Assembly: GCA_904066235.2 (NCBI GenBank)
Contig: CAJFCV020000001.1
Coordinates: 2,728,001-2,792,000, forward strand
From: Bursaphelenchus xylophilus
Taxonomy: Eukaryota > Nematoda > Chromadorea > Rhabditida > Aphelenchoididae
Reading direction: 5' to 3'
Length of the DNA: 64,000 nt
Shown piece after piece: positions 16,401-40,072 of the stretch. Position 1 is the stretch's first letter, and each line of letters opens with the position of its first letter. The translations under genes and the position numbers were made by a program. The notes beneath the pieces were generated by a model. That model made no database searches. It had not been told where the DNA came from and worked only from the letters and a program-made list of their open reading frames with translations.

Positions 16401-18483
16401 TCGATCCCCGCTGAAGACAAATATTGTAAAAAATGTGGAAATGACATTTAATGGAATTATGAGGGTTGTATGAGCAACGCTGAGTATTTTTAGACATCAA
16501 TGTAACATGAATTTGAGGCTAGAACAGGGTTTATATTATTTTAGCCTCGGAATCCGTGAAAAATAAAACTGCTTCAAACGGGCTGAAATTGATAACACCT
16601 ATTCTAGGCCTAATTCTTAGAAACTTTTACGTTAACTTTTTTTTGTTAGATTACTGTAGCGTGGATTACGGTCACATAAAACCCAATTTTGTTTTTTCAT
16701 ACCATAAGGCGCAGAGCCATCGGAATATCACAAAGATTGTAGAAGTGGTTAAGAACGAGTGGGCTTGCGCAATAATAGTTCGTTTATGGCCGTATGTTTT
16801 GAAATACCTGAGTTATCTAACACAGTATCACCAATGGATGATGAGATTAATGCACACTGGAAATGAGTTAGAATCGAATTTTAAATATGAAGTATGCCCG
16901 CTTTCTGCCGTTTGAATAATATAGCCAAAAAAAATTTTAATTTTATGCAAAAATTTTGAAGCAATCGCCTTTAACGAGGCCGAGCTTTTTGTTACCGTAA
17001 TCCACGCTACAGTAATCTAACAAAAAAAAGTTAACGTAAAAGTTTTTAAGAATTAGGCCTAGAATAGGTGTTATCAATTTCAGGCCGTTTGAAGCAGTTT
17101 TATTTTTCACGGATTCCGAGGCTAAAATAATATAAACCCTGTTCTAGCCTCAAATTCATGTTACATTGATGTCTAAAAATACTCAGCGTTGCTCATATAA
17201 CCCTCATAATTCCATTAAACGTCATTTCCACATTTTTTACAATATTTGTCTTCAGCGGGGATCGAACCAGGGTCGGTAGATTACTAGTTTTCGTCAAAAC
17301 CCACTGCGCCATGATTTATCTGCCACGGAATCAAGGATGCAAATTACATGCTCCTAGACCAGAATTTTACGCTGATTCCAAATCTGCAATAAAATCTTGT
17401 GGGATTTCTGATTTGAAGAAGATACGGTCGATTTTTATCGACCGAAGGTCAAAAACTGTATGTTACAGTAATCCTACTAATTTGAAATTGCGATTTTTGA
17501 ATTCGCCATCCACCAAAACCTATACGGTGTCGGTTTCGTCGAGTTGTCTTTATTGCGACGGCAACAGCAGAGCTCAGAAGGACGGATATAACCGTATGCA
17601 AATTTCTACCTTCCGGGCATCACTGGGCAAAAAAATTTTGGGAATGTGTTTTAGTGACCTATACCAACATTTTAGGCCAAAAAACTCAAAAAAAATTTTT
17701 TTGAATGTCCCCGGCTGACGCAGCGAGCCAAAAATCGTCTTTTAAATCGTTTTATTTTCTTTGATTTGATGGGGGTTTTGTCGGTTTATATTTAGGTTCT
17801 GTTGGTTTTGTAAACCCTTTACGGTAGGAATAAGCAAGCAACTTTTCAACTTTAAAATTCTCAAAAAATGGGTAACATTTTTACCGAGCGAGAGCCAGGA
17901 ATTTCGAAAAAGAAATATTCTAAATTTGTGCCAAGATTGACTCATAAAGACCGCTAGGATATGCACCAATCCTTTGCAGGAAACTATGTCGAAATGTGAG
18001 AAAATTCTACTCTTTTCTCGAACTTTGACATGGAAAACTTCATGCCTATGTAGAGGGTAATCCTTCCACAAAAAACTAAGACCTATACATCGTTGAATAT
18101 CTCGGCTGTCCCTGCAAAGCATAAACTAAAATTTTCAAGAATTGATATTTAACCTATGCCCTTACTTTTTTAGAAATTGATATATGACATATTCTTGCTC
18201 AACTTCAGATTTTTACTCTTTCAGAATTGCCACGAACATTGCCCAATGCACTCAGAAGAACTTTACCCACACGAATGACATTTGTGCTATCTGTTTGGAA
18301 GAAGAAGCCCAACAGCCCGTCTACTGCCTCCAATGCCTCAAAGTGGTATGCTGCAAAGGCTGTATGACCCAGCTGATGAAGCACAGTAAGCATTTTTTGA
18401 CCTGCTTGAGATGCCAGAGGAAGAGTTCAATCACATTCCCATTCTTTTTTTATGCTAATGTAAGTCCGAATACGTCGGAATAA
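13409..18483 (+). CDS. RING-type zinc-finger protein with a 4.5 kb intron
   Basis: Two exons, 13409-13680 and 18225-18483, join in phase (CT|A) to give 176 aa. Exon 1 encodes a Ser-rich N-terminus and an amphipathic helical region (LQKQLDELFDFDQ, MGDLEECVNLFHH). Exon 2 encodes a compact eight-cysteine finger: CAICLEEE, YCLQCLKVVCCKGC and CLRC, spaced like a RING/B-box-type zinc fold; ubiquitin ligase activity is possible but not shown. The start at 13409 is chosen because it opens MSTESSAPS; the frame is open upstream to 13265. A canonical GTAAGT donor at 13681 and TTTCAG acceptor at 18224 support the splice. AATAAA lies near 18512. The intron is filled by two large inverted repeats, which is exceptional beside its neighbours. 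Confidence 0.7.
13685..15918. repeat. Large inverted repeat 1 (arms ~930 bp)
   Basis: The left arm (about 13685-14645) and right arm (about 14968-15918) are near-identical in reverse. For example, ACACGAAAATTCAAACTG at the left outer part mirrors CAGTTTGAATTTTCGTGT at the right, and the same 92-residue frame can be read on opposite strands in both arms. The ~320 bp centre has its own direct repeat of about 40 bp (GAAAACGATGGGACGAAAGA, twice near 14805-14870). It lies inside the RING gene intron. No transposase is visible, so it is a foldback-type element or an inverted duplication. Confidence 0.85.
16350..16412 (+). other. tRNA-like segment inside inverted repeat 2, left arm
   Basis: A-box-like TGGCGCAGTGG (16355-16365) and B-box GGTTCGATCCC (16398-16408). 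The spacing fits a tRNA, but the arms between do not fold as a standard anticodon stem. An inverted copy lies in the right arm. Confidence 0.45.
17250..17315 (-). other. tRNA-like segment inside inverted repeat 2, right arm
   Basis: Mirror copy of the left-arm segment: GGGATCGAACCAGGG (B box, reversed) and CCACTGCGCCA (A box, reversed). Confidence 0.45.
17850..18115. repeat. Dispersed repeat copy near RING exon 2
   Basis: CATGCCTATGTAGAGGGTAA followed by CCTTCCACAAAAAA matches, in reverse, the block near 20690 and 43250. No coding signal. Confidence 0.45.
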
Positions 18484-21520: not shown

Positions 21521-22327
21521 AGTAGTAATAAGAGGTAGTTTCTGGCACTAAATTTTGCATCCACTGGAAAAGGGGGGAGGAGCCGGCGCGGGGTGCCGTA
21601 AATGAGAGAGTGTGGGATTGGAGGAGAGTGGGGAGAGAGGTGAGGGAATTTTTATGGTATGGTAGTACTGTAAAGGTGAGAGAGTGAGGGATTGGAGGAG
21701 AGTGGGGAGAGAGGTCAGGGGAATTTTGCGGTCAAATTTCAAAAAAGATGCGCGGGTGTCGTAATTGAAAGGACGCGATGAAATTGCGGTAAAAAATGAA
21801 AAAGATGAGAGAGTGTGGGATTGGAGGAGAGTGGGGAGAGAGGTCAGGGGAATTTTGCGGTCAAATTTCAAAAAAGATGAGAGGGTGTCGTAATTGAAAG
21901 GACGCGATGAAATTGTGGTAAAAAATGAAAAAGGTGAGAGAGTGTGGGATTGGAGGAGAGTGGGGAGAGAGGTCAGGGGGATTTTGCGGTAAAAAAAAAA
22001 TTGAAAAAGGGTGAGAAAGTGGGGAAAAGAGGAGGATTGAGGGTTGTTGCGCAACCTAGAGGTTGCGGGAGGGCAAGAGGTTGCGGGGTGTTGCGCAACC
22101 GAGATGTTATGAATGTTGCGCAACCTAGAGGTTGCGGTAGGTTAAAGAGTTTATGATTTATGTCTGTGATTTTTTTCCGGAAAAAGCGGAAGGATCAAGA
22201 CTATCAAGTCCATCAATAAAGGTTGATGACCCTTCAATAAACTTTTCGACTCAATGATGATGAAATAATTTTTACCCTTTTCAAAAGGATTAAGAATCCA
22301 ATAACTTTTATTCGTTTATTCAAAAAA
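21521..22327. repeat. Polinton left terminal inverted repeat
   Basis: Inverse of 39270-40072. Its outer part is a purine-rich array of about four units around GGAGAGTGGGGAGAGAGG (at about 21622, 21696, 21824 and 21953; main period ~128 bp). Then comes a block with repeated GTTGCGCAACC palindromes (22045-22140), then AT-rich sequence to CGTTTATTCAAAAA. No gene lies in it; the open frame across the array is low-complexity. Confidence 0.9.
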
Positions 22328-22791: not shown

Positions 22792-23497
22792 ATGGCTGCG
22801 CCTATTATGACGGAGGAAGAGAGGACGCGCGCCTCTTTTCTGATCAACCCAATGATGGATACGACAACATCCAAAACTGTAGTCGTCCAGGTCCTCAAGA
22901 CCTTCAACAGCGAGGAGTCCAGGACAATTTGTGCAACTGATTGCTTTAACAATCACATCACTTTAGAATGGCCGTTCCCTGATTTTAATATGGGAGGTGA
23001 GGCAATATATCCGGGCACACTTCTGAAGCTGGATAATACAGAGGTCCAGAAAAATTTGGCCGAAAAGGTAATTTTTGTTGATGACACTACTGTTGTAAAA
23101 CATCTTGGAGGAACCACAAAGAGAAGCGAGTTTTATGAAATGTGCCAAAAAGCACGTCAAGAAGATAAGTAAGTTACGATTTGTATAATACAAGATTTTT
23201 AGGAATACGGAGACGGTTATCATTCTGAGAATTTGGAAGAACAACAGACCTGCTGACGGAGGTCCGGATATGGTAATAAATGGAGCTGACATGTTCAAAA
23301 GACCGATTGTAATATATGTAAATGCACATAATAACGTCTCAAAGTTCTCGCCTCTACGAGAAGGACATGTTTATGATCTTAAACCAAGATCCGCCGAACA
23401 TCTTCGTATTTTAGCTTCTTTGTTTTTGCCAAACGAGAAGGCCCTGTGTATGCAGAGGGATCGTCTAGATCACGAAAGCTTTTTAAAATGCTCATGA
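22792..23497 (+). CDS. Polinton protein, possible OB-fold/ssDNA-binding (223 aa)
   Basis: Exons 22792-23168 and 23203-23497 splice in phase (GTAAGT; TTTTTAG) with a 34 nt intron; TGA at 23495-23497. The first third alternates strands as an OB fold would: [34 protein letters not shown], then a [10 protein letters not shown] segment, a layout seen in RPA-like and SSB proteins. The second exon has another strand-rich part ([17 protein letters not shown]) and ends with Cys. No catalytic motif is visible and it does not contain an integrase DDE core. A single-stranded DNA-binding role beside the polymerase would make sense, but rests on pattern only. The start at 22792 is the first ATG in frame. 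Confidence 0.6.
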
Positions 23498-23508
23498 TCT
23501 GTGCACAG

Positions 23509-23516
23509 TATATAAA
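23509..23516 (+). promoter_or_regulatory. TATA box of the 23549 gene
   Basis: TATATAAA ends 33 nt before the ATG at 23549; it overlaps the 3' end region of the upstream gene. Confidence 0.5.
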
Positions 23517-23548
23517 TGTTTCTTTTTTATAGTAGACAAAATATTATC

Positions 23549-25424: not shown

Positions 25425-25457
25425 ACAAATCACTAACCGTTTTGTTTTTATAGTGAC

Positions 25458-26250
25458 ATGGAGCGTTTGACGTGCCCCTTTCATACAGAGGCGGAGTTGA
25501 TAGAAGATTTTAGATGTGGAGATCTGATTTGCCCAGAGTGTGGCGTCGTTGTCGGCGAACGGATCTTTGACGTCTTAAATGATGTGCCTTTTTATACCAC
25601 AACACCTACATCAAAAATGTCTGAAGAGAATACAAAAATATTACAAGAGATGACCAGTAAAGGACATCTGCCCTCAAGCATTGAAAAGGATGTTTCAATC
25701 CTATTTGACAGAATCAAAGACTATGTAAAAAACACTAGTGACAAACATGTTTTAGCCACTTGCTTGTACATAACATGTCGTAAAAATGGGGTTCCACGGA
25801 GTTTCAAAGGTTATCAATGACCCAAGCGTTTCATTTTTCCCTTTTTAGAAATCTCAGAATTGTCGGCGGTTAACATAAAGAAGATCTATAAATGTTTCAA
25901 ACAGATCCCCGGAAATATTGCCAATGCAAACAAACCGATTGGAGTCGAGGAATATGCAAGCAGATTTTGCGCTTATCTAGGGCTCTCCTATAAAAGACAT
26001 GCTCAACTAGTAAAAATGGTTCATACAGTTCAAAATAAAAGTGTGCTGACGGGGTAACATATATCAATCTAAAAAATAAAAAATGTTCAGAAATCCTCTT
26101 CTTTCAACTATCGCTGCAACTTTATACTACATGTGCAGAGAAGAATACACACTAATGGACATTTACAGGGCAACAGATGTGAGCAAGAATACACTTCGTA
26201 AACTACAGAAACAGATTGAAAAAGTCTTCGAGGAAGAAAAATCCGACTGA
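25458..26250 (+). CDS. TFIIB-like transcription factor encoded by the Polinton
   Basis: Exons 25458-25809, 25849-26053 and 26091-26250 (238 aa) join in phase across introns of 39 and 37 nt. The N-terminus is a zinc ribbon: CPFH, then CGDLICPECGVVVGER, as in TFIIB/Brf/archaeal TFB. A linker follows, then a first cyclin fold with VLATCLYITCRKNGVPRSF and FKEISEL leading to a KKIYKCFKQI helix, and a second, shortened cyclin fold containing YASRFCAYLGL, LLSTIAATLYYMC and a terminal TLRKLQKQIEK helix. Residue order matches TFIIB throughout, although the protein is shorter than the ~300-residue norm. It is flanked on both sides by Polinton genes and lies well inside the TIRs. TFIIB homologues are known in large DNA viruses; I know of none described for Polintons. 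It would recruit Pol II to element promoters. Confidence 0.85.
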
Positions 26251-26398
26251 CCCCCTTTTATCGTTAAATGTTCCCCTTATCCTTACACCTATTTACAATG
26301 TTTTGATTCCCTCTTATTATCATATATTTTTCGTGAACTGTTGGCGTGTTATTATCGTACCTTTCTTAATTCAATTAATAAAGAAAAAAATTTTTTAG

Positions 26399-29300
26399 AT
26401 GACTAACGAAATAGAACAACCACCTTCCAAGAGAAGGCGTCTTACACCCCTGAGGGACTTATCGAATATAAGAGACCCGGCCGTCGATTATCATAGATCG
26501 GCTCCCAATTTTCGCCAATGCTCGGAAACCATTATGGAAGAGCAGACAAACTCCAATCATCCACCTTCCAAGAGAAGGCGTCTTACACCCCTGAGGGACT
26601 TATCGAATATAAGAGACCCGGCCGTCGATTATCATAGATCGGCTCCCAATTTTCGCCAATGCTCGGAAACCATTATGGAAGAGCAGACAAACTCCAATCA
26701 TCCACCTTCCAAGAGAAGGCGTCTTACACCCCTGAGGGACTTATCGAATATAAGAGACCCGGCCGTCGATTATCATAGATCGGCTCCCAATTTTCGCCAA
26801 TGCTCGGAAACCATTATGGAAGAGCAGACAAACTCCAATCATGAAGAATCAATAAAAATGACAACCCAAGAACAAAATAATACATTGTCCCTTGAAGACA
26901 TTCTCAGGCCCGACTTTAAGGTCTTAGGGCCCGCAGAACTCATGCAGTACATGCAGCTACTCGAAAGGTATCTCTTGTTTTTTTCTCTGATTCATTTTTT
27001 AGTGATGATCTCTCAAACATCCCATCGAGTTCTTCACATAATCCCCGCGAAATGATGATGCAAAAACTTTTGGAAGATCTCGACTTTTACAAGGAATTCT
27101 CAGAAACCAATATTTCTCTAGATGATCTTGACGAGGAAAATTTTTCTGATCCGTGCTTTGACATGGCAAGGTTTTTAGGAGGCACAGATACCCTCCCTGA
27201 ATTTGACGATTTTTTCAGACCTCTCCCTCAAAAAGGTCGGGGGTAAGTGCAATAATCGTATAAAAAAGTCAAAAAATTTTATTATAGAATACAATTCTTC
27301 CGTGTCGGAGCCTCTCGAGTTAAAACGTCAGAGAGATTTAAATGCTACTCAAGAGAACAAAAGTACCATATACACATTAGTGAAAACATGAGTGATTTTG
27401 AAAAACGTTTCAATCAGCTTGTAGAACAATCAGTCAACGAGTGCCTCAGAGAAGGTAAACACTTTAAAAAAAAAATCAAATTTAATTTCTAGTTGAAAGA
27501 GGAGGATCAGAAAGGGCCATGTATGTAGGTGTGAGAGTATCGTCCGATAACTTAACGAGACCTCTAAATCATTTCTCCAAAAGAAATGTTTTCGATCCTA
27601 AACATCTTTACACAAAATTATTCAAAATTGCACAGTCATCCAAAACTCCAAGCTTGTTGGGGAAACCCTTTGTACTCAACATAACAGTTCTATATGGCAG
27701 AATCGGTGGCGCTCCCCCGACACGACAGACAACTAGATCCTTTTTGGAGACAAGTACAGGCATTTTCCATGTTAACACTCAGAAGAATGATTGTCTTCCT
27801 GTATCCATAAACATCTCTAGGCTTGCAACTACCAAGGATCTTCCGGGCCATAAAAAATCTGAACGAAAATTGTACAAGGCTCGAAAATTTACAAAACCAA
27901 CAGAATGTGCTGAACTAAAAGAAGCATACAAACATTTTAAGGCTGCAAGTTTAACAGGAAAGGAAAGCATCGAGTTCACGGTTGGCCTCTGGGAAGCTTT
28001 CATGGACCAAAAATACCCAGAAGCCGCTCCACATAAAATTATAGTTTTTGATCGGAGATCTTTTGAGCACGGATGGAGTTACCCGAAACTGGAGAAGGAT
28101 GAGATTTTGGATGTAAAAACTCCAATTATGCTTTATTACCACGACAATCACTACGACTCCATATGGAGTCCCACTGCTTTCTTCGGAGTCAGATCTTTCT
28201 CCAATTTATGTTTCAGTTGTCGGAAATTGATGAGAGAATCAATCGATCATACAGCTAGATGCCAGAAAAAATGCACCAAGTGTTGTCGTATAGGAAACGA
28301 CTTTCCTTGTAAGGATGATGGCTTTGAAAAGAAGTGCGCCGCATGTACAAAAAAGTTTTTAAACAAGGATTGCTATGAACACCATCTGAAGAAAAACATT
28401 TGCTCTTATTACAAAAAATGTGACAAATGTGATCAGGCATATTCAAAAAAGAATGGGCATTTATGTGGATTAAGTTTTTGCGTGTCATGCCGAGGCTTTC
28501 ACGAAGTCGGGAGTGAGTGTTACGTCAACCCCATACCTGTGCCTAAAAAACCTGTCAACTACAACTTGTGTGCCTTTGACTTTGAAACTACCACCACTCC
28601 TTTGAACGATAACTCGAACAGAAGTCAACACTCTGTAAATTTCGCATCAATTCACAAGGCCTGTACAACTTGTATGGCAAACGGTAAATGGAGAGACGAA
28701 GAGACTCCATGTGAAAAATGTGGAGAGCATCTAAAGACGTTTAGTATTCCTCATGGTGACTCCGAAAATGTTGTCAAAGACGTATGGGAGTATCTAAAAA
28801 GTTGCGCAAAAAAGATACCAGTCCTCGCAATAGCACATTTCGGAGGCAAATTCGATTGTCATTTGCTCATGAAAGAAATAAACAAAGACAAGAGTAGGTC
28901 ATTGCAACAAATTCAAATATTTTTTTCAGCCATCTCCAAGATCGATATGATCTTGACAGGGGCCAAATATTACACAATTAATGTCGCTGGAACTGCTGGA
29001 GCTTTCACAGAGGTCAAATTTACAGACTCTTTTAATTACCTCCAAATGCCTCTCGGATCGATGCCAAAGGCTTTGGGTCTTGAAGTTGATTCCAAGGGGA
29101 CATTCCCCCATCTCTTTAACACTCCTGCTCACTATCAAGCTGACCTCCCTCATCATCCGGATATTCAATATTATTGTCCAGACAGTTTGAATGCGAACAA
29201 AAGACAAGAGTTGCTTGACTTTTACGAAGAAAATCGGGATAAACCTTTCAACTTCAAACAACAGTTGTACGATTATGGAATTCAAGACACCAGAATCCTG

Positions 29301-31403
29301 CTGCATGCCTTAGTAAAGTTTAGAAGTATGATTCAAGAGCATTGTCCTACGGACGATGTATTATACTACTGTCCAACCCTTGCTTCTTCATGTCTGAGAA
29401 TCTGGCGAATGTTAGACCTGGAGGAAAGGACCGTCATCAGAACTCCTACTATTGGGTTTGGAGATTTTATACAACAATCAAAAGTGGCATTACTTTTCTT
29501 CAGATGGCTGAGAGACAAAAAGGACATGAAAGATCTCCAATTTAGGGATAATGGGGAAAAAAGGTTAGAACAAAAACAAAAATAATAAAAAATTTTTATA
29601 GAGTTGAGATTGTCATCGACGGAAAGGTCCACAAAATCTCGATAGATGGGTTCTTGGAAAGGCAGAATGAGAAACCTTTGGCATTGGAGCTAAATGGTTG
29701 CTATTATCACGGGTGCAAAGATTGTTGTAAAGATCTCGGAGACCGTTTGCCCTCTGGAATATCTGTAAAAGAAGGGTTACTAAAAACAGAAAAAAGAGTA
29801 AAAGCTCTCGAAGATTTGGGATTTGAAGTCCTTGTTTATAAGGAATGTGAGATTAGGAAAATGTTACAAGAGGACGACGAAATGTCTGCTTATTTTGAGC
29901 AGAGATTCTTTTCGGCGGGTTCTATCAGACTCCGAGATGCCTTCCATGGTGGACGAACTGCTACGCAATGTCTCAAATTTAACGCTAATGAAAGGAAAGG
30001 AATAGGATACACAGACATTCAGAGTCTTTACCCTTATATCATGGCGACCTATGCAATGCCCATAGGGATACCTACACCCTTATACATTCAAAATTATGAT
30101 GTGAATTGGGAATCTGAAGCAGACATTGAGCATGATGGGTTGTATAAAGTTGTTGTTCTTCCTCCTCAGAATCTCGCGCTTCCTGTCCTCCCGATTACCT
30201 GTAACAAAAAGTTAATCTACCCTCTATGTTATTCATGTGCTCAGGAGAATCAAGGAGCCAGCTACAACAAAAACTTGGTATGCGAACATGGAGAGGAAGA
30301 GAGGTCCTTTTTGACAACTACAACATCAGTTGAACTTAAAAATGCCCTCAGGAAGGGATACAAAGTCAAGAAAATATTCGAAATTTTGAAATTTAATGAA
30401 ATGTCGGACGCCCTATTCAAACCCTATGTATATAGGTTTTTAAAAACCAAGCTTGAGGCTTCGGGAAAACCTTATGATGACGAGGCAAAAAATCAACAAT
30501 TCAAGGAGGAAATTAAGCGAAGATATGGGTTTGAAATTGACGAGGGCAAATGGTCTAAAAATCCTGCTCTCCGAACAATCTCCAAGTTGTATCTCAATAG
30601 TTTATGGGGAAAATTGAGTATGAGAACGGATCTTCCCAAGGTAACGAATGAGCACATTTTTTGTAATCTGATTTTTAGACTGTGGTATGTTCCACTGCCA
30701 CCGAGTTCTACAAGATACTCAACAACTCCACCAATGTGATCAAAAGTGTTGATTTGGTGGAGGATGATAAAATATACATTAGCTTCAAGACCTCTGAAGA
30801 ATTCACAACCCCGCTGGAGTTTTCAAATCTGTTGATCCCTACATGGATCACGGCCCAAGCCCGGACCTATCTCTACTCGTTCTTTGAACAGGTGGAGAGT
30901 AAAGGCGAAAAAATTCTGTATTATGATACAGGTAGGTGTGCATGCAAAACAACAACAATCTTTCAGATAGTCTGATCTTCACCTTTGATAAGGCTTCGGG
31001 TGAGTATCCTCTGAAGACTGGAGACTACCTTGGAGATATGGAGTTGGAGAAGAAAGGGAAGGATATCCTCGAGTTTCTTGGACTTGGTGCCAAGCAATAT
31101 GCCTTAAAATATAGGGACGTTGTGACTGGGGAGTTGGAATATGATCTGAAACTCCGCGGAATAAGTTTAAACGGAAAAACATGTTCGATCATTAACTATG
31201 ACTCCTTTTCTGGTCTGGTTGACCGAGTTATTTTGGATGGATATCAAGAATCTTTAACAGCTGTCTACGACGAGATTCGCGCCATTAAGAACGTTGGAGT
31301 TTTCACTACAAATGATAAACAAAAAGTTTATCAAGGTGTTTGTGATAAGGGATATATTGCTAATGACGACGTCACTATTCTTCCATTCGGTTATGTACAA
31401 TGA
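26399..31403 (+). CDS. Protein-primed-type family B DNA polymerase (pPolB) with tandem-repeat N-terminal extension
   Basis: Exons 26399-26967, 27003-27242, 27288-27454, 27493-29563, 29602-30640, 30679-30931 and 30967-31403 keep phase (about 1591 aa). A further in-frame 36 nt intron at about 28891-28926 is likely. The N-terminal 150 residues are three copies of a 47-residue unit with SKRRR. Next comes an acidic region, then the Polinton polymerase entry segment (RGIQFFRVG). Cys-rich zinc-finger-like sequence (CFSCRK, CTKCC, CAACTKKF) precedes the exonuclease: ExoI FDFET (about residue 685), ExoII HFGGKFD and ExoIII YDYGIQDTRIL. Polymerase motifs: A YTDIQSLYP, B KLYLNSLWGKL, and C DTDS split by intron 6. 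It copies the element from its ends, probably with a protein primer. If intron 27243-27287 is retained, a stop at 27244 ends a separate repeat protein. Confidence 0.9.
26420..26842. repeat. Three perfect 141-bp tandem repeats in a coding exon
   Basis: Copies at 26420-26560, 26561-26701 and 26702-26842 look identical at the DNA level. Each codes for 47 residues with an SKRRR basic patch. Multiples of three keep the frame. The identity implies very recent expansion. Confidence 0.9.
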
Positions 31404-31433
31404 TTATTTATTTATTACTTTTTTTATATAATA

Positions 31434-31684
31434 TTATAAATCATACATTTCTTCTTGTAAATAAATTATTGTTATCAAATGACGTGAAGATCCATTATTG
31501 TAAAATACATACATGGCCCAAGATTCGTTTGGGACTATTTGGACTGAGAGGAATGGCCCCGAGGGCGTCGGATACACGGTAGTACTTGAAATAAACAAAA
31601 AGTTTTAAAAGATACTTACGTTTTCTGACCCAGATCAGTGGGGATACCAATAAAAGACGAACCACCCTCCTCAGAAGAAGACAT
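31434..31684 (-). CDS. Polinton small protein, unknown (71 aa)
   Basis: Exons 31620-31684 and 31434-31584 on the minus strand join in phase across a 35 nt intron (GTAAGT / TTTCAAG). The product starts with a Ser/Glu/Gly-rich head (MSSSEEGGSSF), then a Thr/Pro stretch and strand-rich sequence (FLSVQIVPNESWAMYVFY). A TATAAAA box on this strand ends about 50 nt upstream (31734-31740). The stop is 31 bp past the polymerase stop in the opposite direction. I recognise no family; a minor virion protein is possible. Confidence 0.5.
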
Positions 31685-31735
31685 GACGTTTTTTTTTTAG
31701 ACATTAAATGTCTTTTCTAACCAGAACTATCACTT

Positions 31736-32173
31736 TTATACTCCCCATTTTCCCTCGAGGCGTCTAATCACATTCCTCAGTTGTTTCTCACTAATATGGG
31801 AGAGTGTACCATAAATTGATGTATCCGAAAAACCTCTATTTTTGAGGATCAAATATGCAATACAGTAATGCCCGCAGGCTGATGAAAACAAGGATTGGAC
31901 AGGCTTTTGCCAGTAATTTGTATTTGGAAATTTACTTGTAATTTCGTGTGGCGGCGGATCTCCAAAACTGTCGAAATAGAACACTCTTTTTTGAGAATCA
32001 CCGTACAAAGCGACCCAATGTGAACCTGGCTCATAGCTCTTATCGAGATTGTATATGACACTAAACGGGTACTTGGGGGGAAGACTGACTTGGTCTATCG
32101 AAAGCACGTCTAAGAAGCTCGAAGCTAGCGAGGGCGTCAGCTTGATTATTCTTCGGATTTCGTTTTCGTCCAT
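31736..32173 (-). CDS. Adenain-like cysteine protease of the Polinton (PRO)
   Basis: A single exon of 145 aa carries the adenovirus/ULP-type protease core in order: the His motif GSHWVALYG (about residue 51), the acidic FDSFGDPPP motif (about 67), and the SACGHYCIAYLI motif with the nucleophile Cys (about 98). Polinton and adenovirus proteases of this class mature capsid proteins at Gly-rich sites. The length is on the short side of the family but all three catalytic positions and the oxyanion Gln-like surroundings are present. The N-terminus overlaps the small membrane-protein frame at 32061-32297. Confidence 0.9.
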   Translation of the reverse strand: MDENEIRRIIKLTPSLASSFLDVLSIDQVSLPPKYPFSVIYNLDKSYEPGSHWVALYGDSQKRVFYFDSFGDPPPHEITSKFPNTNYWQKPVQSLFSSACGHYCIAYLILKNRGFSDTSIYGTLSHISEKQLRNVIRRLEGKWGV

Positions 32174-32297
32174 TTATAAGTCCGTGCACAATAAAATATA
32201 CAAACAAAACAATAGTGTAAATTATGCTTACAGCACAAAAAATGAGTTCGTTGTAACGATTGCAAGAGTCGGGAAGTTCAGGAACTGAAACATCCAT
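32061..32297 (-). CDS. Possible small membrane protein (78 aa) overlapping PRO
   Basis: ATG at 32297 abuts the stop of the upstream gene (32298). After a short head with one Cys comes a strong hydrophobic span, LIFCAVSIIYTIVLFVYFIV, then basic GRKRNPKNN. Its last third overlaps the protease gene in another frame, so the true 3' end may differ or the frame may be chance. Spacing argues for a real gene; overlap argues for caution. Confidence 0.4.
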   Translation of the reverse strand: MDVSVPELPDSCNRYNELIFCAVSIIYTIVLFVYFIVHGLINGRKRNPKNNQADALASFELLRRAFDRPSQSSPQVPV

Positions 32298-33230
32298 TTA
32301 ATGCCTTTTCAAAACTTTCGGTGTGCTTTTATACTTCCACGAAAGAACCTTGAATCTGTAGTGTCTTCTTTTCAATAAAACTCCTCGGGCTACTTGCTTT
32401 CTCTCCCTCTTTGTCCGTCCGCTCATAAGTTGATGAATCATATCCTTTGTACCTTCATTCTTGTACATTTTATTTAGAAAATCGATGGGAACGGTGTCAG
32501 CACCAACAACAGGATTCTTGGCCCACTGTTTGAGAAGAGCTTCAGCATTAAAAGTCGTTGCTTTTCCTTTTTTATCTTTTAAGAATCCCTTTTCTGATAT
32601 CCCAAACGTATCTGGGGCCCGTCGGAGTTTCCCTTTTAAAGAATTTGCAATTTCTAAGGCTTTGGAAGGAGTGATTGGAGGAAGGGCTTTCCAACCCGTA
32701 AAGGGTTGGCGTTCACTTTTTGGAGTCGTATTTTTTGGGGTTCTACGGCTGACAGGTGTAAAAAATTCATGGCCTTCTTCGTTTTCGGGGTCAGGGGATT
32801 GTTCTGATTCGAGGTCGGGGATTTGTTCTGAATTGGGCTCATGTTCTTCTTCCCGGTTCTCAGAATGTTTTGGGACAAATCGACGTTTTATTCTAACCCT
32901 CGGAGTTTTCCCAGCAGTTCTCTGAACTTCCTTATAAATTTTGGCAAACAGTTCCCCGTATGCTCCATCATCATCTACTTTTGAGATTGATTTTCCCGTT
33001 TTGGCCCCTGTCGATCCATCTTCAAAAGTAACCTTAACAGGTTTATTATCCATCTCTCTTTTTCTGCGAAGATAATCAGGCATTTGTTGATTATATTTCA
33101 AATACTTTGTGCCCACATTGCCTTTTTGATGCAAGGTCTTGTTGACATTTGATTGAGAAAAATCTTCAGAGGTTGTTGTGTTTAGAATATTGTTGTAAAA
33201 ATCCTCTGGCACTAGGAAAAATTTTTTCAT
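32298..33230 (-). CDS. Conserved Polinton-type basic protein (310 aa)
   Basis: One exon. The opening MKKFFLVPEDFYNNIL resembles the K-LVPE start of an uncharacterised protein common in Polintons between protease and ATPase genes. The middle is charged and disordered, with KTPRVRIKRRFVPK, a Glu/Pro/Asn-rich repeat-like stretch (about 125-160) and a Thr/Pro/Lys part. The C-terminal part is basic (GRTKRERKQVARGVLLKRR), suggesting DNA contact, as a core or minor capsid protein would make. It overlaps the next upstream gene by four bases (33227-33230), so the two share a coding strand block. Confidence 0.65.
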   Translation of the reverse strand: MKKFFLVPEDFYNNILNTTTSEDFSQSNVNKTLHQKGNVGTKYLKYNQQMPDYLRRKREMDNKPVKVTFEDGSTGAKTGKSISKVDDDGAYGELFAKIYKEVQRTAGKTPRVRIKRRFVPKHSENREEEHEPNSEQIPDLESEQSPDPENEEGHEFFTPVSRRTPKNTTPKSERQPFTGWKALPPITPSKALEIANSLKGKLRRAPDTFGISEKGFLKDKKGKATTFNAEALLKQWAKNPVVGADTVPIDFLNKMYKNEGTKDMIHQLMSGRTKRERKQVARGVLLKRRHYRFKVLSWKYKSTPKVLKRH

Positions 33231-33553
33231 TTTAGGAATAATCTCGACGCTTCAAGTAGTGCAGGAATAATTAAGGCAGCAAATGGAAGACCGGCTCCTT
33301 TCTGAAGATGTTTAAGCCCCGAGGCGGTAGACCTTTTTCGACTCAATTCGCGAATAAAGGTAGCGTATGGCAACAACTTTTTCCTTTGGTGGGGAGTTAA
33401 ATGGATGTTCCCTTGAACAAGATTATAACAGATCTCCACAATTGCTTGGACTTGTTCTGGAGAGCAAGAACTTAAAAACAATTTTCGACTTTCAGGACTC
33501 TTGAACGACGCCAATTTTTTTAGAAACAAGACATGCTTTTGAATAAGCTTCAT
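33227..33553 (-). CDS. Small conserved Polinton protein with hydrophobic C-terminus (108 aa)
   Basis: A single exon. The pattern KLASFKSPESRKLFLSS, IVEICYNLVQGNIHLTP and KKLLPYATFIRELSRKR, then a Gly-containing hydrophobic tail (GAGLPFAALIIPALLEA), matches a small protein often seen beside Polinton capsid genes. A Gly-rich break before the hydrophobic tail could be a protease cleavage point that frees a membrane-active peptide, by analogy with adenovirus minor proteins; this is inference. A TATAAATA box (minus strand, 33582-33589) lies 29 nt before the ATG. Confidence 0.65.
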   Translation of the reverse strand: MKLIQKHVLFLKKLASFKSPESRKLFLSSCSPEQVQAIVEICYNLVQGNIHLTPHQRKKLLPYATFIRELSRKRSTASGLKHLQKGAGLPFAALIIPALLEASRLFLK

Positions 33554-33584
33554 AAACTAGATTTTTGGTTGTTCTCTTTGCTAT

Positions 33585-34214
33585 TTATACTTTGTACACC
33601 ACCATGGAGTCTGTCGAAAAAATGTTTGTACGTAGTCTCAAATCAACAGGTGTCTTTGGATGTAGATCGATTAAAAGATAGCCGAATTGTTCCTTTGTTG
33701 CATCACGATATGCTTCCATAAATCCCTTTTTACCGGGGAAAATTTGTGAGCCTAGTGTTCGTACTTGAAGTTCAGCGTTCGGAGCTCTCATTAAAATGAT
33801 ATATTGGGAATTTATGCGTGGAACACGGAGTTTTGGTTCGAAAATTGATTGACTCAATGTAATCACACCCAAGTTTTGATGATGCGCCTTCTTTGTGTAA
33901 AGCTCTGTGAGGTACTGAGGGTCTATCGATGTAATCAGGTCGTCCAACACAAGGAGCAAAGGTTTTTTTGAATTTTTTATTAGCTCATCATCCGGGAGTC
34001 CTGAAACAACTTTAATTCCCTGTTTTGCTAGATGTGTAACATGTTCTCCAAACTCTCCATAACAATAAACCACATCCTTTGGCGGGGGATCAAAAATTTT
34101 ACGCGCATTTTCTATAATTTGGAGCATTAAGGACGTCTTTCCGCTGCCTGAAGAACCTCCTAATAAAAGACCAGATGGTAGGTGAAGTTTCAACTCCGTA
34201 GCAGAGAAAGCCAT
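33585..34214 (-). CDS. FtsK/HerA-type genome-packaging ATPase of the Polinton
   Basis: A single exon of 209 aa. Walker A GGSSGSGKTSL is at residues 19-29, Walker B LLLVLDDL near 85-92 and a TLSQSIF sensor-like segment near 119-125; an Arg-containing MRAPN follows. Length and order fit the A32-like packaging ATPases of Polintons, adintoviruses and virophages, which pump the genome into preformed capsids. It is transcribed as a block with the basic protein and protease genes downstream. The promoter may be shared divergently with the gene at 34289, through the AAGTATTTAAGACAG stretch in between. Confidence 0.9.
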   Translation of the reverse strand: MAFSATELKLHLPSGLLLGGSSGSGKTSLMLQIIENARKIFDPPPKDVVYCYGEFGEHVTHLAKQGIKVVSGLPDDELIKNSKKPLLLVLDDLITSIDPQYLTELYTKKAHHQNLGVITLSQSIFEPKLRVPRINSQYIILMRAPNAELQVRTLGSQIFPGKKGFMEAYRDATKEQFGYLLIDLHPKTPVDLRLRTNIFSTDSMVVYKV

Positions 34215-34288
34215 TGTTTAGCCCGAAATACAAAAATTTTTCTGTCTTAAATACTTTTTCTGCTCCGTCTAACGCTCGTTTCTTCAAA

Positions 34289-34686
34289 ATGTCTCTGAGA
34301 ATTCAAGATTTCTTGAGGACCAATTGTACGTGTCCCAACAACTTTGACTGTTATCGTCCTTTTGGGTAATTTTTTGCATTAATGATTTTTTAAAATGTCC
34401 TTTTTAAGGTATCTGGAACCCCTTATATGCTTGGATTCTAATTATAATGTTGGAAAGACGCTCGATGAAAATTGTTTCTTGAACTTCTCCATCAAATTCT
34501 GGCCCTTGGCTAGCTTAATCCTTGGAATAGTTGCTTTCTTCTTCACTGTAAGATCAAATTCAATATATCATTTTATACCGATTTTAGCTTCTAATCCTCA
34601 TTTGCTCAGGATTAATTGGGGTCCGTGTGAACAAATGTTGTCAATGTCGTAGCAAGGTCATTGAGGAGATCGATATCAACGAATAA
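34289..34686 (+). CDS. Small Cys-rich single-pass membrane protein (104 aa)
   Basis: Exons 34289-34365, 34409-34547 and 34588-34686 join in phase with introns of 43 and 40 nt. The head has five cysteines in a short ectodomain-like part (NCTCPNNFDCYRPFG; a Cys pair further on), then a long hydrophobic span (FWPLASLILGIVAFFFTLL, continuing hydrophobic across the exon junction) and a Cys-rich cytoplasmic-type tail (CCQCR) with acidic end. The architecture is that of a small virion or envelope-type membrane protein; no family is recognised. It lies between the packaging ATPase and the capsid genes. Confidence 0.65.
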
Positions 34687-34822
34687 AACATTGTGGGTTT
34701 TTAAAAAAATATTGTTGTGTCCAAAACAAAATGTTAATCATCAATAAAAATTTTTGTAATCACTAGACTTTTGATTCTGGTTTTGTCATAGATCTTACAG
34801 TTGAGGTGCAAGCAGATAAAAG

Positions 34823-34830
34823 TATAAATA
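34823..34830 (+). promoter_or_regulatory. TATA box of the 34861 gene
   Basis: TATAAATA, 31 nt before the start codon. Confidence 0.5.
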
Positions 34831-34860
34831 CGTATGTTTTGACTTATTTGGACACTAGAT

Positions 34861-35322
34861 ATGGTTCTTGTACCCTTTGACTCTTCGAAAATAGTCGACT
34901 TTTCGCCTCAGGGCAAGACTCAATACGGTAGAAGTTTTCAATATGGTTCTGGATTTTCTTCATCTCCCTTTTATGCGGGAAAAATGTTTCATCGCGGGAT
35001 GGGAAGAATACACAGAGGGCATGGCTTAGGATCAGTTCTTGGTAATGTGTGGCGTTATTTTGCTCCTGTCTTGAAAGCTGCGGGGCAGAGTTTGGGAAAA
35101 GAAGCCTTGGAAACGGGGAGTCGTATTCTCGGAGATATGGCTCAACCACAGAGTGAAGATTTGAAGACCATAATGGTTCGCAACACCTCACAAGGAGCTC
35201 GGAATTTGTTGCGCAAGGCTTCAAATAAATATTTGCATAAAGGGGAGGGAAGGAAACGAAAGGCATCAGGGCGCAAAGGAATGATAAAGAAGAAAAGGAC
35301 CGATGTGTTTGGCATGTACTAA
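34861..35322 (+). CDS. Conserved Polinton minor virion-type protein (153 aa)
   Basis: Single exon. The Gly/Tyr/Ser-rich N-terminus (QYGSGFSSSPFYAGKMF, HRGMGRIHRGHGLG) is followed by an amphipathic segment LGNVWRYFAPVLKAAGQSLG and KEALETGSRILGDMA, then a very basic tail (GRKRKASGRKGMIKKKR). The order Gly-rich head, F-R-LK-AG helix and basic tail is shared by a protein family found beside Polinton major capsid genes. The basic tail suggests genome contact inside the capsid. The gene ends 44 bp before the major capsid start. Confidence 0.65.
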   Translation: MVLVPFDSSKIVDFSPQGKTQYGRSFQYGSGFSSSPFYAGKMFHRGMGRIHRGHGLGSVLGNVWRYFAPVLKAAGQSLGKEALETGSRILGDMAQPQSEDLKTIMVRNTSQGARNLLRKASNKYLHKGEGRKRKASGRKGMIKKKRTDVFGMY

Positions 35323-35326
35323 ACAG

Positions 35327-35334
35327 TATATAAA
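35327..35334 (+). promoter_or_regulatory. TATA box of the major capsid gene
   Basis: TATATAAA, 33 nt before the ATG at 35367. Confidence 0.55.
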
Positions 35335-35366: not shown

Positions 35367-36683
35367 ATGTCGTTTAAGAAGATTGATGCTCGAAGTGAAG
35401 AGAGTGTTTCGTCATCTCTCGATGTTTTCAATGTCCCCGAAACAAATATATCAGCGTCTCATTCCCAATTTAGTGAATATTTAACCCTAAACCCAATTTC
35501 TGAAACTCCTTACCAATTTAAAGTAATGCCTGGAAGCTCTTTTGTTGATTTGACAAAAACTTTTCTTATGACATCGATGAAAATGCAAAAATCATCAGAT
35601 AATGGTCAAACTTGGATAAATATTGAAGCCAATGATAAGGTCGCTCCTATCCAAGGCATTGGGGCAACCTTTATTCAAAATATGAGACTACTAATAAACG
35701 GCCAGGAGGTTTACCATTCAAATTCTTTACAAAGCTGGAGAACCTACTTTGACCTTTTGCTTAATTTCCCCTCAACTGCCAGTCAAACTTATCTCTCCTC
35801 TCTGGGATGGTATGATAGTGTAAAATTTAACGATGAAACGGACTCGGGGTTCCAAAAGCGCCGCGCAATGTTTGTGGGAGGACAGGAAGCGCACTTTGTA
35901 ACAAGGCTTTTCTGCGAGCTCGCAAATGTTCCAAAATTAATGCTTAATCACACGGATCTTGTGTTGGAGATTACGCCTGCAAAGAATTTGTTTTGTATTG
36001 AGAGTAATGTGACAAATCAAGCAACGCAGTTCCGTCTTACCATAACCTCCTGTAAATTATATGTGAAAACTGTGGATTTAAACGATGGTGTGGGAATGGG
36101 ATTTGCCAATACTTTAATTAAAAATCCCGCAATCTATCCAATCAGGAAAACGGATTTGAAATCCTTTTTCATTTCTCAAGGCAGACAAGAATATGTTACA
36201 ACCTTAAGTACAGACCAGGTCCCTCGGAGGGTTGTTTTTGGTTTAACAAATCACCCTGATGTCCAAGACTCTTCGAAAAAGTCTCCCTTTAATTTTGTAC
36301 ACAGTGACCTAAGATCCGTTACTCTCTCTGCTAATGGTCAACAATTCCCTTGCATCCCTTATGAAATGGATTTTACAAAAGATAATTTTATTAGGGCCTA
36401 TCATGATTTTAATGAGGCTTTGGGTTTCGCATTTACCGATTATTCATGCACTATCGATAGGGAAATGTACAAAAAGGGTTTTACGATCTTTGTCTTGAAT
36501 ATGACAACAACCTTAGAAGATGACAACTGCATGGACTTGATCAGAAACGGACCTGTTTCGTTAAGACTTGCTTTTAACACTCCCGTCGGGGAATCAGGTC
36601 TTAGCCTGATTGCTATGATCGAATATGACGCCACAATGCTTGTCGATAATAACCGAAACGTTCAAATGTCCTACAGCGTATAA
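35367..36683 (+). CDS. Polinton major capsid protein (double jelly-roll)
   Basis: A single exon of 438 aa, no introns. The N-terminal part has the Polinton MCP signature: SLDVFNVPETNISASHSQF, then an ISETPYQFKVMPGSSFVDLT strand pair, FIQNMRLLINGQEVYHSN, then the double jelly-roll continues with KRRAMFVGGQEAHFVTRLF and LMLNHTDLVLEI. The C-terminal barrel includes ITSCKLYVKTVDLNDG and ends LIAMIEYDATMLVDNNRNV. The protein forms pseudo-hexameric capsomers in this virus lineage. The frame is fully open and no residue loss is apparent, so the capsid gene looks functional. Confidence 0.9.
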   Translation: MSFKKIDARSEESVSSSLDVFNVPETNISASHSQFSEYLTLNPISETPYQFKVMPGSSFVDLTKTFLMTSMKMQKSSDNGQTWINIEANDKVAPIQGIGATFIQNMRLLINGQEVYHSNSLQSWRTYFDLLLNFPSTASQTYLSSLGWYDSVKFNDETDSGFQKRRAMFVGGQEAHFVTRLFCELANVPKLMLNHTDLVLEITPAKNLFCIESNVTNQATQFRLTITSCKLYVKTVDLNDGVGMGFANTLIKNPAIYPIRKTDLKSFFISQGRQEYVTTLSTDQVPRRVVFGLTNHPDVQDSSKKSPFNFVHSDLRSVTLSANGQQFPCIPYEMDFTKDNFIRAYHDFNEALGFAFTDYSCTIDREMYKKGFTIFVLNMTTTLEDDNCMDLIRNGPVSLRLAFNTPVGESGLSLIAMIEYDATMLVDNNRNVQMSYSV

Positions 36684-39269: not shown

Positions 39270-40072
39270 TTTTTGAATAAACGAATAAAAGTTATTGGAT
39301 TCTTAATCCTTTTGAAAAGGGTAAAAAATTATTTCATCATCATTGAGTCGAAAAGTTTATTGAAGAGTCATCAAATTTTATTGATGGACTTGATAGTCTT
39401 GATCCTTCCGCTTTTTCCGGAAAAAAATCACAGACATAAATCATAAACTCTTTAACCTACCGCAACCTCTAGGTTGCGCAACATTCATAACATCTCGGTT
39501 GCGGAACACCCCGCAACCTCTTGCCCTCCCGCAACCTCTAGGTTGCGCAACAACCCGCAATCCTCCTCCTTTCCCCACTTTCTCACCCTTTTTCAATTTT
39601 TTACCGCAAAATTCCCCTGACCTCTCTCCCCACTCTCCTCCAATCCCACACTCTCTCACCTTTTTCATTTTTTACCGCAATTTCATCGCGTCCTTTCAAT
39701 TACGACACCCGCGCATCTTTTTTGAAATTTGACCTCAAAATTCCCCTGACCTCTCTCCCCACTCTCCTCCAATCCCACACTCTCTCATCTTTTTCATTTT
39801 TTACCGCAATTTCATCGCGTCCTTTCAATTACGACACCCGCGCATCTTTTTTGAAATTTGACCGCAAAATTCCCCTGACCTCTCTCCCCACTCTCCTCCA
39901 ATCCCTCACTCTCTCACCTTTACAGTACTACCATACCATAAAAATTCCCTCACCTCTCTCCCCACTCTCCTCCAATCCCACACTCTCTCATTTACGGCAC
40001 CCCGCGCCGGCTCCTCCCCCCTTTTCCAGTGGATGCAAAATTTAGTGCCAGAAACTACCTCTTATTACTACT
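39270..40072. repeat. Polinton right terminal inverted repeat
   Basis: Inverse of 21521-22327. The outer part has CTCTCTCCCCACTCTCCTCC units at about 39627, 39755, 39883 and 39957; the inner part has GTTGCGCAAC palindromes and TGTCTG lies just outside. Small differences from the left copy are visible (for example CGCGCATC against GAGAGGGTG-type variants). Confidence 0.9.

What the first reader, a model, noticed from the sequence alone, without database searches (positions are those of the whole stretch)
25458..26250. TFIIB-like general transcription factor carried by a Polinton
Seen: zinc ribbon, two cyclin-like folds and TFIIB-type helices in a three-exon gene inside the TIRs, flanked by the penton and polymerase genes. 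Known: TFIIB homologues occur in some nucleocytoplasmic large DNA viruses; I know none in Polintons. Inference: the element may carry its own initiation factor to direct host Pol II to its promoters, which would be a new regulatory layer for this group.
Basis: partly seen in the sequence, partly recalled or inferred. Interest (0 to 1): 0.9.

Follow-up and report, generated by a model that had tools for sequence, protein, structure and literature searches.

The report
Captured host TFIIB gene in a Polinton
A virus-like mobile element of the pine wood nematode carries a captured, shortened copy of the animal gene for TFIIB, a protein that places RNA polymerase II on genes, so the element may steer its host's gene-reading machinery; what the protein actually does is not yet known.

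Summary
Window 25458-26251 is a three-exon gene for a 238-residue TFIIB homologue: zinc ribbon plus two TFIIB repeats, all above Pfam cut-offs. It lies in an 18.55-kb Polinton in a genome whose own TFIIB is identical to that of Bursaphelenchus xylophilus. All seven near-identical copies of this element carry it with an open frame, each with a perfect 6-bp target-site duplication. It is no retrocopy: both introns share codon and phase with introns of host TFIIB, so a cellular gene was captured as DNA. It is old (34% identical, silent sites saturated) and was not found in three other Polinton lineages of the genome. About 48 reader/linker residues are missing; the Pol II-docking ribbon is best kept, repeat 2 poorly. 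I favour an accessory initiation factor for these genes (0.45); a decoy and a passenger are the rivals. No published Polinton TFIIB turned up, but two key nematode papers could not be read.

The parts
21521..22286 (+). left terminal inverted repeat, begins AGTAGT; preceded by target-site duplication TGTCTG
39311..40072 (-). right terminal inverted repeat, ends ACTACT; followed by TGTCTG
25458..25809 (+). TFIIB-like gene, exon 1 (zinc ribbon, shortened linker, start of repeat 1)
   Evidence: intron after the first base of the Glu-118 codon, as in host TFIIB
25849..26053 (+). TFIIB-like gene, exon 2 (rest of repeat 1, start of repeat 2)
26091..26251 (+). TFIIB-like gene, exon 3 with stop codon (rest of repeat 2)
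   Evidence: intron in phase 2 of the Gly-186 codon, as in host TFIIB
25446..25452 (-). TATA box of the penton-like gene, 5 nt from the TFIIB start codon
23922..25415 (-). penton-like ORF (497 aa; name from position and resemblance, no Pfam match), head to head with TFIIB
23382..23543 (-). N-terminal remnant of the integrase; the rest is deleted in this copy (junction 23383/23384)
22792..23172 (+). ORF of unknown function at the left end
26399..27055 (+). ORF with three 141-bp tandem repeats between TFIIB and the polymerase
27486..31403 (+). DNA polymerase B gene, apparently in several exons (PF03175 in two pieces)
31736..32173 (-). adenovirus-type protease-like ORF (PF00770 below cut-off)
33585..34214 (-). 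packaging-type ATPase-like ORF (weak P-loop matches, below cut-off), TATA box at 34247-34253
34861..35322 (+). small structural-type ORF, TATA box at 34823-34829
35367..36683 (+). major-capsid-like ORF (name from position and resemblance, no Pfam match), TATA box at 35327-35333

Best explanation
SHOWN: one Polinton lineage of this nematode carries a TFIIB gene captured from a cell as intron-bearing DNA. INFERRED: the protein is an accessory or alternative initiation factor. Its conserved ribbon docks on host Pol II, and its two repeats still sit on TBP at TATA boxes, so that Pol II is brought to the element's TATA-box (late-type) capsid, ATPase and penton genes, perhaps when the host factor is limiting or with changed preference for the sequence beside the TATA box. 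TFIIB itself has no TATA box in the window searched and would be made early by the host factor. The penton TATA box lies 5 nt from its start codon, so late transcription could shut the gene off.
For: TFIIB family by profile, repeat by repeat, and by solved relatives. Residues invariant in 19 animal TFIIBs and kept here: ribbon 13 of 17, repeat 1 16 of 29. Both introns shared with host TFIIB in codon and phase. Open frame in 7 of 7 copies, each a separate insertion with its own TSD. Silent sites saturated against host TFIIB while the ribbon keeps 25 of 42 residues, which neutral drift would hardly leave. TATA boxes 36-40 nt before 5 of 5 structural-type genes in this lineage and before 0 of 6 other gene starts, background 4-5% per window. 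Precedents: ASFV TFIIB has shorter reader/linker motifs than human TFIIB and is thought to serve late genes (PMC10881513, passages); the algal virus CpV-BQ1 encodes two TFIIBs and a TBP, which its authors think redirect host Pol II (PMC12085832, passages).
Against: Three sister lineages have the same TATA arrangement and no TFIIB match, so it is not required for those promoters. Between the one divergent copy and the window copy TFIIB shows 4 nonsynonymous and 1 synonymous change, against 8 and 14 in six other gene segments: no sign of recent constraint, though the numbers are tiny. No transcript or protein evidence: the 5.8-billion-protein set gave no near-identical protein, although it holds the neighbouring penton-like protein.
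Confidence: 0.45

Rival explanations
1. Decoy or brake: the shortened TFIIB binds Pol II through its ribbon, and perhaps TBP, but cannot support start-site opening because most of the reader/linker is gone. It lowers host (or the element's own) Pol II initiation, for example to limit silencing transcripts or copy number.
For: Reader/linker shortened in all seven copies; the ribbon is the best conserved part, and repeat 2, which includes the promoter-DNA helix, keeps far fewer invariant residues (12 of 42).
Against: ASFV TFIIB also has shorter reader/linker motifs and is thought to be active. A strong global inhibitor would harm the host germline in which the element must persist (inference).
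Confidence: 0.25
2. Passenger: a captured gene that hitch-hikes, now evolving without constraint, its frames intact only because the seven copies are young.
For: 4 nonsynonymous to 1 synonymous change against the divergent copy; six copies have identical coding sequence. Not found in sister lineages. No expression evidence.
Against: To reach 34% identity with saturated silent sites and still hold 238 open codons, all four zinc ligands and both splice pairs needs long past constraint. Seven of seven copies keep it.
Confidence: 0.2
3. Origin from a viral TFIIB (nucleocytoplasmic large DNA viruses) or an ancient Polinton gene rather than a captured animal gene.
For: Very long branch (8.3), and the AU tests do not reject positions outside nematodes or outside animals (p 0.33 each). 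Giant viruses often encode TFIIB.
Against: Two of two introns match host TFIIB introns in codon and phase (chance about 1e-5 by my estimate). The best tree puts it among nematode TFIIBs (100/97). Three scans of viral contigs gave no relative. No giant-virus TFIIB was in the tree, so this is not a direct test.
Confidence: 0.04

Closest known systems
Cellular TFIIB (host gene of this Bursaphelenchus xylophilus genome, G000 C5:4540108-4541358; human GTF2B)
   Same: Zinc ribbon with all ligands, two TFIIB repeats; two introns at the same codon and phase as the host gene
   Different: 34% identical to the host protein; 238 against 305 aa; about 48 reader/linker residues absent; repeat 2 strongly changed; two of four host introns absent; encoded by a mobile element
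TFIIBs of nucleocytoplasmic large DNA viruses, such as ASFV and CpV-BQ1
   Same: A DNA virus or virus-like element coding for TFIIB; shorter reader/linker in ASFV (PMC10881513, passages); in CpV-BQ1 thought to redirect host Pol II (PMC12085832, passages)
   Different: ASFV has its own RNA polymerase; no polymerase subunit was seen among the element's ORFs given to Pfam. Here the gene has introns shared with an animal gene. No such viral sequence was compared directly
Nematode Polintons/Mavericks with captured cargo (wosp proteases, krma kinases; also a fusogen; Widen's work as described in PMC10680173, passage read)
   Same: Nematode Polinton carrying captured cellular genes
   Different: The cargo here is a general transcription factor
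Vertebrate Mavericks (PMC8097293, passages read)
   Same: AGTAGT..ACTACT ends, perfect 6-bp duplications, PolB, integrase in sister copies
   Different: The intact vertebrate elements are reported intronless; here TFIIB, and apparently PolB, have introns; TFIIB is extra
TFIIB-like factors of other polymerases (Brf1, Rrn7/TAF1B)
   Same: Ribbon plus two repeats
   Different: A second TFIIB-family gene of the genome (C2:5238562-5239554; I take it for Brf, name inferred) matches far less well than host TFIIB; the solved relatives listed are all TFIIBs

Membership tests
TFIIB family | N-terminal zinc ribbon (PF08271) with CxxH..CxxC ligands | tested here: met
   E=7.9e-8, 32.2 bits over cut-off 29; ligands (known from TFIIB, recalled) at residues 6, 9, 25 and 28
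TFIIB family | two TFIIB (cyclin-like) repeats, PF00382 | tested here: met
   60-137 plus a second stretch; residues 138-238 alone 28.1 bits over cut-off 23.6
TFIIB family | B-reader and B-linker between ribbon and core | tested here: not met
   48 residues missing against host TFIIB; 2 of 11 invariant residues kept. So a homologue of TFIIB, not a complete canonical TFIIB
TFIIB family | binding to TBP-TATA and to the Pol II dock | not testable with these tools
   needs biochemistry
Polinton/Maverick | long TIRs with AG..CT ends and 6-bp target-site duplication | tested here: met
   ends and duplications in 7 of 7 copies; TIRs in the window copy
Polinton/Maverick | DNA polymerase B (PF03175) | tested here: met
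   E=5.3e-15 and 2.2e-26 for two pieces
Polinton/Maverick | retrovirus-type integrase (rve) | tested here: met
   5 of 7 copies: 50% identity over 307 aa, no stop in the matched stretch, to the lineage C integrase, whose ORF matches PF00665 over cut-off; the window copy and C5:1542k have lost most of it
Polinton/Maverick | packaging ATPase, protease, major and minor capsid proteins | tested here: inconclusive
   ORFs in the expected places with relatives in the other lineages; Pfam matches below cut-off or none; no structure prediction possible
Processed retrocopy of host TFIIB | introns absent, high identity to the parent gene | tested here: not met
   two introns at parental positions, 34% identity

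The most novel reading that the evidence does not exclude
A Polinton has turned a captured host general transcription factor into its own early-to-late switch. The element's TFIIB, made early from a TATA-less gene, recruits host Pol II to the TATA-box capsid genes. Because the penton TATA box overlaps its own 5' end, late transcription shuts the TFIIB gene off.
Probability: 0.15. Interest if true: 0.88.

Novelty: new variant of a known kind. Interest (0 to 1): 0.68.

Why it matters
Polintons are thought to sit close to the roots of several eukaryotic DNA virus groups, and how the integrated forms control their own transcription is hardly known (recalled background). A captured, intron-bearing TFIIB shows that such an element can take a gene of the basal transcription machinery from an animal as DNA, a possible route by which larger DNA viruses came by such factors. 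The shared TATA promoters with and without TFIIB, in four lineages of one genome, give a natural comparison in which the role of the captured factor can be tested.

Tried and rejected
Rejected: recent retrocopy of host TFIIB (introns and divergence); chance ORF (profile matches, seven copies); Brf rather than TFIIB; gene confined to a single element; hidden linker exon (exon 1 runs open from ribbon to repeat 1). I first thought that the whole lineage lacks an integrase; two searches showed that only two of seven copies do.

Led nowhere: P0001 against 5.8 billion proteins gave three distant TFIIB-domain proteins of 252 candidates; viral-contig scans gave 0 confirmed of 9, 38 and 11 pattern stretches; structure prediction not available. 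Literature: ten searches; nine bore on Polintons, Mavericks or virophages, one on the TFIIB reader. Lists were complete and capped in 9 (30 of 191), 13 (25 of 222), 47 (20 of 139), 53 (15 of 800) and 75 (15 of 22). No listed title or abstract start reports TFIIB in a Polinton. I looked up passages in 11 of these papers; of the 8 papers that hold both words I looked at 5 (PMC12638062, PMC11464507, PMC12085832, PMC11003980, PMC6401483), where TFIIB belonged to giant viruses; the other 3 (PMC6563490, PMC6746690, PMC10598087) were seen in the listing only. Jeong et al. 2023 (PMC10748475) is not held, and the Widen work was seen only as reported in PMC10680173, so prior mention there cannot be excluded. 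The tree used 36 of the 123 homologues listed plus the query, chosen by hand for spread; its bootstrap had not settled; no giant-virus or archaeal TFIIB was included because none was obtained.

Full report
What is there. The gene at 25458-26251 (+) has three exons and two GT..AG introns of 39 and 37 nt and encodes 238 residues. Pfam finds the TFIIB zinc ribbon (residues 5-39, E=7.9e-8) and TFIIB repeats (E=1.1e-19, two stretches), all above cut-off; the C-terminal 101 residues alone also pass for PF00382. The closest solved protein is human TFIIB, E=2.1e-30. Exon 1 alone runs open from ribbon to repeat 1, so the short linker is real and not a missed exon.

Where it lies. The terminal inverted repeats, about 21521-22286 and 39311-40072, start AGTAGT and end ACTACT and are flanked by the duplication TGTCTG. 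Between them lie PolB (PF03175), a protease-like, an ATPase-like and capsid-like ORFs. The names penton and major capsid rest on position and resemblance, not on a profile or a structure. The genome is 78.25 Mb in 8 contigs; its own TFIIB is 100% identical to a Bursaphelenchus xylophilus protein.

Copies. The protein finds seven full copies (four on C1, one on C4, two on C5), one remnant on C5, host TFIIB on C5 and a second TFIIB-family gene on C2 that I take for Brf. The ATPase, capsid-like, PolB and penton-like queries each find the same seven places at 99-100% identity, so all copies of this element that were found carry the gene. All seven TFIIB frames are open: splice pairs and frame were read in four copies, and the other three differ from the window copy by nothing or by one intronic base. 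Six coding sequences are identical; C1:3531k has five exon substitutions. All seven copies have both ends and a perfect, different 6-bp duplication, so they are independent transpositions. The remnant (C5:2175523) is a 103-bp stretch at 88% identity with no other match to the element in 9 kb, a hint that TFIIB-carrying elements are older than the present burst.

Origin. Host TFIIB has five exons. Its intron inside the Glu codon of VPRTFK|E (phase 1) and its intron inside the Gly codon of LVAG|RSP (phase 2) coincide in codon and phase with the two introns of the Polinton gene. With three host introns in the alignable part, two of two matches by chance is about 1e-5 (my estimate). The host intron at ADFM|SRFC is absent, and the stretch that holds the fourth host intron lies in the missing linker. 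A reverse-transcribed copy or an intronless viral gene does not explain this; capture of a genomic TFIIB gene does. The best tree places the protein among nematode TFIIBs (support 100/97), but its branch is 8.3, the bootstrap had not settled, and AU tests do not reject placing it outside nematodes or outside animals (p 0.33 each) or next to Bursaphelenchus (p 0.39). The introns carry the argument, the tree only agrees. Introns of other nematode TFIIBs were not available, so the donor species is open.

Constraint. Against host TFIIB the protein is identical at 80 of 238 aligned residues. Of 78 identical residues with synonymous alternatives, 56 use another codon; dS could not be estimated (saturated), dN is 0.33 in the ribbon and 0.74 in the core. 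Of residues invariant in 19 animal TFIIBs, chosen from the 120 listed, it keeps 13 of 17 in the ribbon, 2 of 11 in reader/linker, 16 of 29 in repeat 1 and 12 of 42 in repeat 2. So the Pol II-docking part is best kept. Against the only divergent copy TFIIB has 4 nonsynonymous and 1 synonymous changes; six other gene segments together have 8 and 14. These numbers are too small for a test, but they give no sign of recent constraint on TFIIB.

Distribution. The genome holds at least three more Polinton lineages, roughly 35-57% identical over the stretches matched by ATPase, capsid-like and PolB queries, and a decayed closer relative on C6 (76-78% in two short ATPase pieces). Genome-wide PF00382 and PF08271 searches find over-cut-off matches only in the seven copies, host TFIIB and the Brf-like gene, plus two weaker PF08271 matches elsewhere on C4 and C1; the tool scores only its best candidates. 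ORFs from 25 aa in the penton-PolB stretches fetched from those lineages give no TFIIB match at E 1, and none was seen in the 20 kb around the C6 relative. TFIIB is thus most simply an acquisition of one lineage. Penton-like and PolB genes are neighbours in all four, with none to two small ORFs between them in the other three.

Promoters. TATA boxes (TATAWAW or TATTTAA) lie in the window from 70 to 20 nt before the start of five structural-type genes (penton, ATPase, capsid-like, g34861, g33227): 5 of 5 in this lineage and 19 of 20 over one copy each of four lineages; the miss (lineage C ATPase) has one about 71 nt upstream. Random windows score 1.8-6.5%. One of the 20 starts (lineage C capsid-like) was taken from the alignment because no ATG was found. 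In this lineage none precedes TFIIB, g26399, g22762, g36897, protease or g32298 (0 of 6). The genes were chosen after seeing the pattern; 5 of 11 starts is still far above background, and the four lineages are not independent. This speaks both ways. The late-type promoters are of the kind that TBP and TFIIB serve, but lineages without their own TFIIB have them too.

How it probably works. Shown: capture, integrity, lineage limits in this genome, loss of most of reader/linker, conserved ribbon, TATA promoters. Inferred: use of host Pol II and TBP, because no polymerase subunit or TBP appeared among the 17 ORFs or pieces given to Pfam, one of them outside the element. ASFV TFIIB, with shorter reader/linker motifs, is thought to work at late genes (PMC10881513, passages), so a short linker does not by itself mean an inactive protein. 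The algal virus CpV-BQ1 encodes two TFIIBs and a TBP, and its authors think that these redirect host Pol II (PMC12085832, passages): the proposed mode of action has a precedent in larger viruses. Expression is unknown; no near-identical protein is in the large protein set while the neighbouring penton-like protein is.

Known or new. Giant viruses carry TFIIB as a marker gene (PMC12638062, passage). Nematode Mavericks carry captured proteases and kinases and a fusogen (PMC10680173, passage). None of nine searches on the subject listed a report of TFIIB in a Polinton, with the gaps told under Tried and rejected: capped lists, three unread papers, and Jeong 2023 and Widen 2023 not available. I file it as a new variant of a known kind: a Polinton with a captured general transcription factor.

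Noticed in passing
window 23382-23543, junction 23383/23384; G000 C5:1542k copy: The window copy and C5:1542k share an internal deletion of most of the integrase, while the other five copies keep it without stops in the matched stretch; both deleted copies have their own target-site duplications, so they seem to have moved with integrase supplied in trans.
   Followed up: yes
L028, L030, L032, L068, L075, L076 and window 25446-35333: TATA boxes 34-59 nt before structural-type genes in all four Polinton lineages, with lineage-typical variants (TATTTAA at all lineage C matches).
   Followed up: partly
window 26399-27055: ORF with three 141-bp tandem repeats, 100% alike by TRF, in frame, just upstream of the polymerase; unknown function.
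   Followed up: no
window 21672-21994 and 39599-39921: 129-bp tandem repeats inside the terminal inverted repeats whose number seems to differ between copies.
   Followed up: partly
G000:C6:12110300-12120200 (L066): Scrambled remains of an older relative of this lineage (ATPase piece 79%, left-end ORF 69% identical) without a TFIIB match in the 20 kb fetched.
   Followed up: partly
window 22792-23172: Left-end ORF of unknown function, with a relative in the decayed C6 element; no Pfam match.
   Followed up: no
window 13730-15878 and 15964-17702: Two large, nearly perfect inverted repeats (914 and 717 nt arms, 321 and 305 nt apart) outside the Polinton.
   Followed up: no
P0088 and P0087: Steinernema carpocapsae and Pristionchus fissidentatus have a second, diverged TFIIB of normal length (66% identical to the Bursaphelenchus one).
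   Followed up: no
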